DNA of 64,000 nt. It comes from Candidatus Eisenbacteria bacterium (GTDB taxonomy: Bacteria; Orphanbacterota; Orphanbacteria; Orphanbacterales; Orphanbacteraceae). Positions 13,733 to 15,417 of this stretch are shown here, piece after piece. The position numbers and the translations under genes were made by a program. Each line of letters opens with the position of its first letter. Positions within the stretch are counted from its first letter, which is position 1. The notes below the pieces were generated by a model. The model ran no database searches, was not told the DNA's origin, and was given only the letters and a program-made list of their open reading frames with translations. The stretch lies in assembly GCA_016930695.1 (NCBI GenBank), contig JAFGGD010000008.1, positions 62,001 through 126,000 of the forward strand, written 5' to 3'.

Positions 13733-14227
13733 TTACGCCGCGCCGCGGGCGGCGAGTTGGCGGTCGATCATGAAGAGACCGTTGGTGTTGGCGCCGACCA
13801 TCTTGAGCATCTGCACCACCTCGTCCACCGACGCCTCCTCTTCCACCTGCTCCGTCACGAACCACTGGAGCATGGCCTGGGTGGCGTGGTCCTTCTCGAC
13901 GACGGCCAGGTTCACCAGCTTGTCGATCGAGGCGGTCACCTTCTGCTCGTGCAGATAGGCGTCCTGGAAGGCGGCGAGGGGGGTCTTCCACGTGGCCTGG
14001 GGCGCGGAGATGGCCTGCAGCGTCGCCGTTCCGCCCCGCTCCAGGATGTAGTTTTGGATCTTCAGCCCGTGCCCGACCTCTTCCTGAGCCTGCATGCGCA
14101 TCCAGGCCGCGGCCCCGTTCAGGTTCTTGGCCGCGAAATCGACGGACATGGAGAGGTAAAGATAGGCGCTTTCCAGCTCCATGTTCACTTGGTCGTTCAG
14201 GGCTTTCTCCATTTTCTTCTTCAGCAT
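13733..14227 (-). CDS. ftn: Ferritin (non-heme)
   Basis: The protein has 164 residues in a four-helix ferritin-like fold. The ferroxidase centre residues are visible: E17, E50 and H53 in the first helix pair, then the later E and Q residues in the YLHEQKVT and FVTEQVEEE segments. The second half matches bacterial FtnA (WFVTEQVEEEASVDEVVQ). It stores iron as ferric mineral in the cytoplasm and limits Fenton chemistry. The next gene upstream on the same strand is the selenoprotein-type ArsC/Spx gene (97 nt gap), so a shared redox or iron-stress role is possible but not shown. GGAGAAAGCC precedes the ATG. Confidence 0.95.
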   Translation of the reverse strand: MLKKKMEKALNDQVNMELESAYLYLSMSVDFAAKNLNGAAAWMRMQAQEEVGHGLKIQNYILERGGTATLQAISAPQATWKTPLAAFQDAYLHEQKVTASIDKLVNLAVVEKDHATQAMLQWFVTEQVEEEASVDEVVQMLKMVGANTNGLFMIDRQLAARGAA

Positions 14228-14324: not shown

Positions 14325-14660
14325 TCAGAGCCGCCGGTACGCCTCTTCGTCCAGTCCGAATATGTATGTGTTCCCCTTCACCGCCAGGGGGCGGCGGAGA
14401 AGGTTCATGTCTTCTCTCATGAGGCGGATCGCCTCTCGTTTGCCGATCTTCTTCCCCTTCAAGCCGCGCTCACGGAAGGGGATGCTGCGGGGATTCAGAA
14501 AATCCTCCACCGGGCGGTCGCCGATGAGGCTTTCCAGCTCCTTCCGGGTGAGGGGGGCCTTGTCGAAGTCGCGCCACTCCGTCTCCACACCGAGTTCCCG
14601 CAAGAGACCTCTTGCCTTCCGACAGGTGCTTCAAGTGGATTTGCAGTAGACGCGGATCAA
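14325..14660 (-). CDS. ArsC/Spx-family thiol-redox protein with in-frame TGA (selenocysteine)
   Basis: A conventional call starts at TTG 14603 and gives a 92-aa protein that lacks the redox motif. Reading upstream in frame restores the missing N-terminus: TTG 14660, then I-R-V-Y-C-K-S-T, TGA (complement 14631-14633), then S-T-C-R-K-A-R. This aligns exactly with the ArsC/Spx start (Y-x-K/N-x-x-C-x-x-C-R-K-A), with TGA in place of the first, nucleophilic Cys (residue 10 of 111) and C13 as resolving Cys. The rest fits PF03960: PLTRKEL, PVEDFLN, and LLRRPL with the conserved Arg-Pro. GGGAGAGGGAGA stands before the TTG. A SECIS-like hairpin follows the TGA. Family members are arsenate reductases or Spx-like/YffB-like redox proteins; which one applies here is not decidable. 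A simple nonsense mutation is unlikely given the SECIS. Confidence 0.88.
14585..14633 (-). promoter_or_regulatory. Bacterial SECIS-like element directly after the TGA codon
   Basis: In the mRNA sense the TGA (14633-14631) is followed, 21 nt later, by a GGUC loop (14609-14606). A perfect 6-bp stem GCAAGA/TCTTGC (14615-14610 with 14605-14600) closes the loop. A lower CACC/GGTG stem (14628-14625 with 14591-14588) closes the base. Distance and loop match the requirement for SelB binding in bacteria; the E. coli fdhF SECIS has an 18-nt distance and a GGUCU loop. Confidence 0.82.
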
Positions 14661-14751
14661 TCTCCCTCTCCCATTCTCCCGGTCGAGCCTCGTGTCCGGT
14701 TCGAGATCTATAAGATAAAACGTTTCGCGTCTCCGAGCCAACCCCGGAAAA

Positions 14752-15417
14752 TCAGAAGCCCGCCAGGAAGGGGTTCCCGTTCCTTTCCTCTTGTATGGTG
14801 GTGTCCGGGCCGTGGCCGCAGTGGACCACCGTGTCGCCCGGGAGGATCAGAAGCCGCTCCCGGATCGATCGCAACAGCGCCTCCCCGTCGCCGCCGGGGA
14901 GGTCGGTCCGTCCGATGGAGCCCCGGAAGAGGGTGTCGCCGGCGAAGAGGTGTCCGCGGACGAGGAAGGCGGTTCCCCCCGGCGTGTGGCCGGGCAGGTG
15001 AATCACGGCGATCTCGACGCCGGCGATGTCGAGCCTCTCGCCGTGCCGGAGAGGCCGTCCTTCCGAGGGGACGCGGGGCGGCTCGATCCCGAACAGGGCG
15101 GCGTGCTCCGGCGCGGCCTCGGCGACGGGCCGGTCCGCGGGATGCAGGTAATAGGGGGCGTGAAAACGCTCCCGAAGCGCCTCCACGGCGCCGATGTGGT
15201 CGAGATGGCCGTGGGTGTTCAGGATCGCCGCCAATCGCCGACCCCCGGCTTCGATCCGCTCCGCGATCCGGTCCGGTTCGCCGCCCGGATCGATCAGGAT
15301 CGTGTCGGGTCGGTCCGTGCGGCCGAGGAGCCAGGCGTTCGCCTGGAAGGGACCGACCGTGATCCGGTCGATCCGCAAAATGTATTTACACTCATTTTGC
15401 ATGGCGATGTTTTTCAC
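14752..15417 (-). CDS. Metallo-beta-lactamase-fold hydrolase (glyoxalase II-like)
   Basis: The protein has up to 221 residues. The metal-binding signature THGHLDH (about 80-86) is followed by a later His (LPGHTPGGT), an Asp in LFAGDTLFRGSIGR and a His in VHCGHGPDT, as in the GloB-like/YcbL group. Likely role: hydrolysis of thioesters such as S-lactoylglutathione or a bacillithiol or other thiol equivalent. Start choice is uncertain. The annotated ATG gives an N-terminus, MKNIAMQNECKYI, that overlaps a perfect inverted repeat (15375-15400). TTG 15378 (LRIDRITVGPFQANAW) would match typical family starts better and leave the repeat as an operator. Confidence 0.85.
   Translation of the reverse strand: MKNIAMQNECKYILRIDRITVGPFQANAWLLGRTDRPDTILIDPGGEPDRIAERIEAGGRRLAAILNTHGHLDHIGAVEALRERFHAPYYLHPADRPVAEAAPEHAALFGIEPPRVPSEGRPLRHGERLDIAGVEIAVIHLPGHTPGGTAFLVRGHLFAGDTLFRGSIGRTDLPGGDGEALLRSIRERLLILPGDTVVHCGHGPDTTIQEERNGNPFLAGF
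15375..15400. promoter_or_regulatory. AT-rich inverted repeat at the start of the metallo-hydrolase gene, operator-like
   Basis: GCAAAATG (15375-15382) and CATTTTGC (15393-15400) form a perfect 8-bp inverted repeat with a 10-nt spacer, TATTTACACT. The AT-rich half-sites stand out against the GC-rich surroundings and have the size and symmetry of a dimeric repressor site. They cover the possible TTG start of the - strand gene. Confidence 0.5.

What the first reader, a model, noticed from the sequence alone, without database searches (positions are those of the whole stretch)
14325..14660. Hidden selenoprotein: ArsC/Spx-family gene with TGA at the nucleophilic Cys
Seen: the recognisable ORF starts too late and lacks the redox site. 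Continuing upstream in frame across a TGA (complement 14631-14633) restores a textbook ArsC/Spx start, ending at TTG 14660 with a ribosome site. The TGA lies exactly where the first Cys of CxxC should be, giving a U-x-x-C motif. Known: selenocysteine typically replaces redox Cys, and ArsC-like selenoproteins have been described from bacterial selenoproteome surveys (from memory). Inference: this is a 111-aa selenoprotein, and the host must encode SelA, SelB, SelC and SelD.
Basis: partly seen in the sequence, partly recalled or inferred. Interest (0 to 1): 0.92.

Follow-up and report, generated by a model that had tools for sequence, protein, structure and literature searches.

The report
ArsC/Spx-like selenoprotein with U-x-x-C
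A small redox protein whose gene looks broken by a stop codon is almost certainly read through with selenocysteine at its active site, in a bacterium that carries the full selenocysteine machinery; this is a sound example of a kind of selenoprotein already on record.

Summary
On the minus strand, 14660-14325 reads as a 111-aa ArsC/Spx-like protein if the in-frame TGA at 14631-14633 (codon 10) is selenocysteine; TGA falls on the nucleophilic Cys of the C-x-x-C motif (Cys10 of Bacillus Spx). A 75%-identical gene in a MAG labelled Binatota has TGA at the same codon. A search of 395 genomes of that MAG's phylum gave nine more Sec forms (eleven in all) and five Cys forms. All ten Sec-form genomes tested besides the window's own have SelA. 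Fifteen nt after the UGA lies a hairpin, GCAAGA-GGUC-UCUUGC, with the guanine-led loop and spacing of the bacterial SECIS model. It uses codons rare in neighbouring genes, is identical in the nearest relative, and covaries across the Sec forms. A sequencing error, a pseudogene or a TGA-reassigned code do not fit. The kind is known: ArsC-like selenoproteins, U-x-x-C and U-x-x-S, were reported in 2006-2008 surveys. This gene misses the curated model NF041106, so it is a divergent member. Substrate and partners are inferred, not shown.

The parts
14325..14660 (-). ArsC/Spx-like selenoprotein gene, 111 aa, TTG start at 14660-14658, TGA stop at 14327-14325
   Evidence: Translation with TGA=U; PF03960 51.1 bits; AlphaFold2 model mean pLDDT 95, best PDB matches Spx and YffB with TM about 0.85
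14631..14633 (-). in-frame TGA read as selenocysteine, residue 10 of the UxxC motif
   Evidence: Aligned to Cys10 of Spx and to TGA in ten relatives, TGC in five
14600..14615 (-). proposed bacterial SECIS hairpin GCAAGA-GGUC-UCUUGC, 15 nt after the UGA, apical loop 21 nt after it
   Evidence: 6 bp stem, loop begins GGU; identical 16 nt in L022; 63 of 66 stem cells paired across 11 Sec forms; two pairs with compensatory changes in the group of seven
14661..14680 (-). purine-rich ribosome-binding region GGGAGAATGGGAGAGGGAGA
   Evidence: Sequence; consensus only

Best explanation
This is a functional selenoprotein gene of the ArsC/Spx (thioredoxin-fold) superfamily. The UGA at codon 10 is decoded as selenocysteine by SelB with tRNA-Sec, directed by a hairpin 15 nt downstream. 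The protein is most likely a small reductase of the ArsC/YffB kind: Sec10 attacks an oxidised substrate (a disulfide, glutathione adduct or oxyanion) and Cys13 resolves the selenium intermediate as a Se-S bond, which thiols or thioredoxin reduce. Shown by sequence: frame, UGA position, conservation, Cys counterparts, sel genes, hairpin covariation and (by prediction) fold. Inferred: actual Sec insertion, catalytic steps and substrate.
For: selC: 71.6 bits over the Rfam cut-off, ARAGORN tRNA-SeC with anticodon tca; selB 368 bits; selA 448 bits; selD 397 bits, all above cut-off in the window's genome. TGA at the same codon in L022, 75% identical, whose genome also has tRNA-Sec. Eleven Sec and five Cys forms; SelA in all ten further Sec-form genomes tested. 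The hairpin meets the published bSECIS limits on stem, loop and spacing (PMC13188914). Its codons GCA AGA GGT CTC TTG have joint probability 9e-8 given the amino acids and local usage, yet are identical in L022, where only 36 of 75 other identical residues share a codon. Covariation. Fold.
Against: No protein or selenium data. In the window sequence a competing fold is slightly more stable than the SECIS hairpin (its pair probability about 0.1-0.3) and the folding z-scores of the region are near zero. The bare hairpin is -5.8 kcal/mol, -7.4 with dangling ends, just short of the published -7.5 limit. A hairpin of that energy arises in 58% of synonymous recodings in this GC-rich background, so the structure persuades only through conservation and covariation. 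Six other genomes of the phylum lack the gene although four have SelA.
Confidence: 0.95

Rival explanations
1. The gene is a pseudogene or the TGA is a sequencing error for a Cys codon; the real or decaying product is the 92-aa ORF from TTG 14603.
For: The shorter ORF exists, with AGAGG close upstream of its TTG.
Against: The same TGA is conserved in ten relatives from independent assemblies, down to 29% identity; both sides of the TGA are conserved; the short ORF lacks strand 1 and the redox site.
Confidence: 0.02
2. The organism reads TGA as an ordinary sense codon (for example Trp or Gly).
For: None found.
Against: This gene and five of seven clear neighbouring genes end in TGA, and none of those seven has an internal TGA; the residue replaced is the catalytic Cys; tRNA-Sec, SelA and SelB are present.
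Confidence: 0.01
3. It is a selenoprotein version of the Spx transcriptional regulator: Sec10-Cys13 is a redox switch and the protein binds the RNA polymerase alpha subunit.
For: Best structural matches are Spx bound to alphaCTD; the best NCBIfam model is TIGR01617 Spx/MgsR-like, below cut-off at 65 of 75 bits; the UxxC spacing equals that of Spx CxxC.
Against: Spx Gly52, needed for the alpha contact (my own knowledge), aligns with Pro50; the protein ends at 111 aa, without the Spx C-terminal tail; YffB matches as well by fold.
Confidence: 0.12
4. It is a true arsenate reductase.
For: PF03960 member; the Arg90-Pro91 pair is invariant in the subfamily.
Against: TIGR00014 arsenate reductase 36 bits against a cut-off of 106; the adjacent genes are an MBL-fold hydrolase and a ferritin, not ars genes.
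Confidence: 0.15

Closest known systems
'Arsenate reductase 2' selenoproteins of the Global Ocean Sampling survey (cd03032, UxxC; PMC2398784)
   Same: Same superfamily (cd03032 is the ArsC/Spx domain, from my own knowledge), U-x-x-C motif, Cys homologues exist
NF041106 ArsC family (seleno)protein, UxxC (listed in PMC13188914)
   Same: UxxC ArsC-like, similar length
   Different: This protein scores 26.5 bits against a cut-off of 85, so it is outside that curated subfamily
ArsC-like selenoproteins of Desulfotalea and Desulfuromonas (PMC1794560) and 'ArsC 1' UxxS (PMC2398784)
   Same: Selenoproteins of the ArsC family; in the UxxS type U stands at the nucleophile
   Different: The UxxS type lacks the resolving Cys; relatives of that type were also met here (L051, L054)
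Spx (B. subtilis) and YffB/PA3664
   Same: Fold, TM about 0.85; for Spx also the redox position 10
   Different: Cys rather than Sec; Spx has a longer tail and Gly52

Membership tests
Bacterial selenoprotein | in-frame UGA at a position held by catalytic Cys in homologues | tested here: met
   TGA in 11 and TGC in 5 members at the same codon
Bacterial selenoprotein | host encodes SelA, SelB, SelC, SelD | tested here: met
[quoted passage not shown]
   stem 6, loop GGUC, spacing 21; model from PMC13188914
Bacterial selenoprotein | bSECIS energy at or below -7.5 kcal/mol | tested here: inconclusive
   -5.8 for the bare hairpin, -7.4 in context, and a competing fold in the window sequence; -8.1 in L022
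Bacterial selenoprotein | selenium incorporated in the protein | not testable with these tools
   needs 75Se labelling or mass spectrometry
ArsC family PF03960 | match above curated cut-off | tested here: met
   51.1 bits against 24
NF041106 ArsC_rel_Se_1 | match above curated cut-off | tested here: not met
   26.5 bits against 85
Spx regulator | match above the Spx models; Gly52 equivalent | tested here: not met
   TIGR01617 64.7 of 75.05, NF002459 43.1 of 123 bits; Pro at the Gly52 position
Arsenate reductase TIGR00014 | match above curated cut-off | tested here: not met
   36.1 of 106.05 bits

The most novel reading that the evidence does not exclude
The eleven Sec forms found here, with their Cys sisters, are a selenoprotein subfamily not covered by the curated model NF041106, with its own covarying SECIS hairpin; two Cys forms in genomes without detectable SelA still carry a SECIS-like hairpin, caught after loss of Sec.
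Probability: 0.35. Interest if true: 0.45.

Novelty: new member of a known kind. Interest (0 to 1): 0.36.

Why it matters
A standard-code ORF call gives only a 92-aa fragment here, so the redox site of the protein is lost to annotation. The Sec and Cys sister forms, in related genomes with or without SelA, give a small system in which to ask what Sec adds to an ArsC-like enzyme and how a SECIS decays after Sec is lost.

Tried and rejected
Single-sequence folding of the UGA region gave no excess stability, and a loose hairpin scan is not discriminating at 68% GC, so energy alone was not used as evidence. Rfam has no match in the window and no tRNA lies in it. No relative in viral contigs; plasmid hits are ArsC/Spx homologues at 38% identity or less. 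No conserved gene neighbourhood was seen around the relatives. PF00384 hits in the genome hold no in-frame TGA, so they gave no second selenoprotein. A tree of the family leaves the direction of Sec/Cys change open: two changes, weak inner branches.

Full report
Observation. The minus strand from 14660 to 14325 is one frame interrupted only by TGA at 14631-14633. The mechanical ORF list gives a 92-aa ORF starting at TTG 14603. With TGA as U the product is 111 aa, LIRVYCKSTUSTCRKARGLLRELG..., and ends at a second TGA, 14327-14325. PF03960 matches residues 5-110 (51.1 bits, cut-off 24). In the alignment to solved Spx chains residue 10 sits on Cys10 of the CxxC site.

Machinery. The window lies in a 3.78-Mb, 96% complete assembly of 60 contigs. 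It holds tRNA-Sec (71.6 bits; ARAGORN tRNA-SeC, anticodon tca), SelB (368 bits), SelA (448 bits) and SelD (397 bits), all above curated cut-offs. TGA is still an ordinary stop: five of seven clear neighbouring genes end in it and none of them has an internal TGA.

Relatives. One contig of a MAG titled Candidatus Binatota (L022) encodes a 75%-identical protein with TGA at the same codon, starting at ATG behind AAAGGAG; its genome also has tRNA-Sec. Searching 395 genomes of that MAG's phylum gave nine further Sec forms and five Cys forms of the same subfamily. In the alignment residue 10 (Sec or Cys, written C there), T12, C13, R14, R30, E41, S59, R90 and P91 are invariant. All ten Sec-form genomes tested besides the window's own have SelA; of five Cys-form genomes three have it and two do not, with the caveat that such genomes may be incomplete. 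Six other genomes of the window's phylum have no match, although four of them carry SelA. Patchy presence and 75% identity to a MAG from another phylum suggest horizontal transfer; this was not tested further.

SECIS. Fifteen nt after the UGA is GCAAGA-GGUC-UCUUGC, its loop 21 nt from the UGA. [quoted passage not shown] The energy is borderline in the window sequence and a competing fold is slightly better there, whereas in L022 the hairpin dominates. Energy alone is not evidence: 58% of synonymous recodings do as well. The evidence is comparative. The codons GCA AGA GGT CTC TTG are rare in neighbouring genes (joint probability 9e-8), yet identical over 16 nt in L022, while elsewhere only 36 of 75 identical residues share a codon; at that rate five in a row has a probability of about 0.025, so the identity alone is modest. 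Across the eleven Sec forms the six basal stem pairs form in 63 of 66 cells, which none of 5000 shuffles reached (shuffles ignore relatedness, and the register of the two groups was set by hand with a 3-nt difference in the loop region). In the seven-member group two pairs change on both sides, and sliding the partners destroys the pairing.

Function. The AlphaFold2 model is confident (pLDDT 95) and nearest to Spx and YffB (TM about 0.85), then E. coli ArsC (0.75). Scores lie below the curated cut-offs of the Spx, arsenate reductase and NF041106 models. The Spx residue Gly52 aligns with Pro50, and the Spx tail is absent. I therefore favour a reductase in which Sec10 is the nucleophile and Cys13 resolves; this is inference. 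Upstream is an MBL-fold, glyoxalase II-like hydrolase and downstream a ferritin; relatives do not obviously share these neighbours.

Known or new. ArsC-like selenoproteins were reported in 2006 (PMC1794560) and, as UxxS and UxxC groups, in 2008 (PMC2398784). The curated UxxC subfamily NF041106 does not include this gene. It is a new member of a known kind, possibly an uncurated subfamily.

Noticed in passing
L018 1396-3618 (-) (G000:C58): selD is the C-terminal half of a 740-aa ORF whose N-terminal half looks like a NifS/IscS-type cysteine desulfurase; the SelD motif is GLGCACK, a Cys form.
   Followed up: no
L032 and L034, about 15 nt after the TGC codon: Cys forms in two genomes without detectable SelA carry a SECIS-like hairpin (GCGCGA-AGUUUC-UUGCGC in L032), possibly a remnant of a Sec ancestor; the tree does not settle the direction.
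   Followed up: partly
L051 and L054: ArsC-type genes with in-frame TGA at the nucleophile in a UxxS context (YHNPSUGKSR, YHNPGUGQSR), the known 'ArsC 1' type.
   Followed up: no
window 13733-14227 (-) and 14752-15417 (-): Same-strand neighbours: a non-heme ferritin 97 nt downstream and an MBL-fold glyoxalase II-like hydrolase 91 nt upstream; not seen around the relatives.
   Followed up: partly
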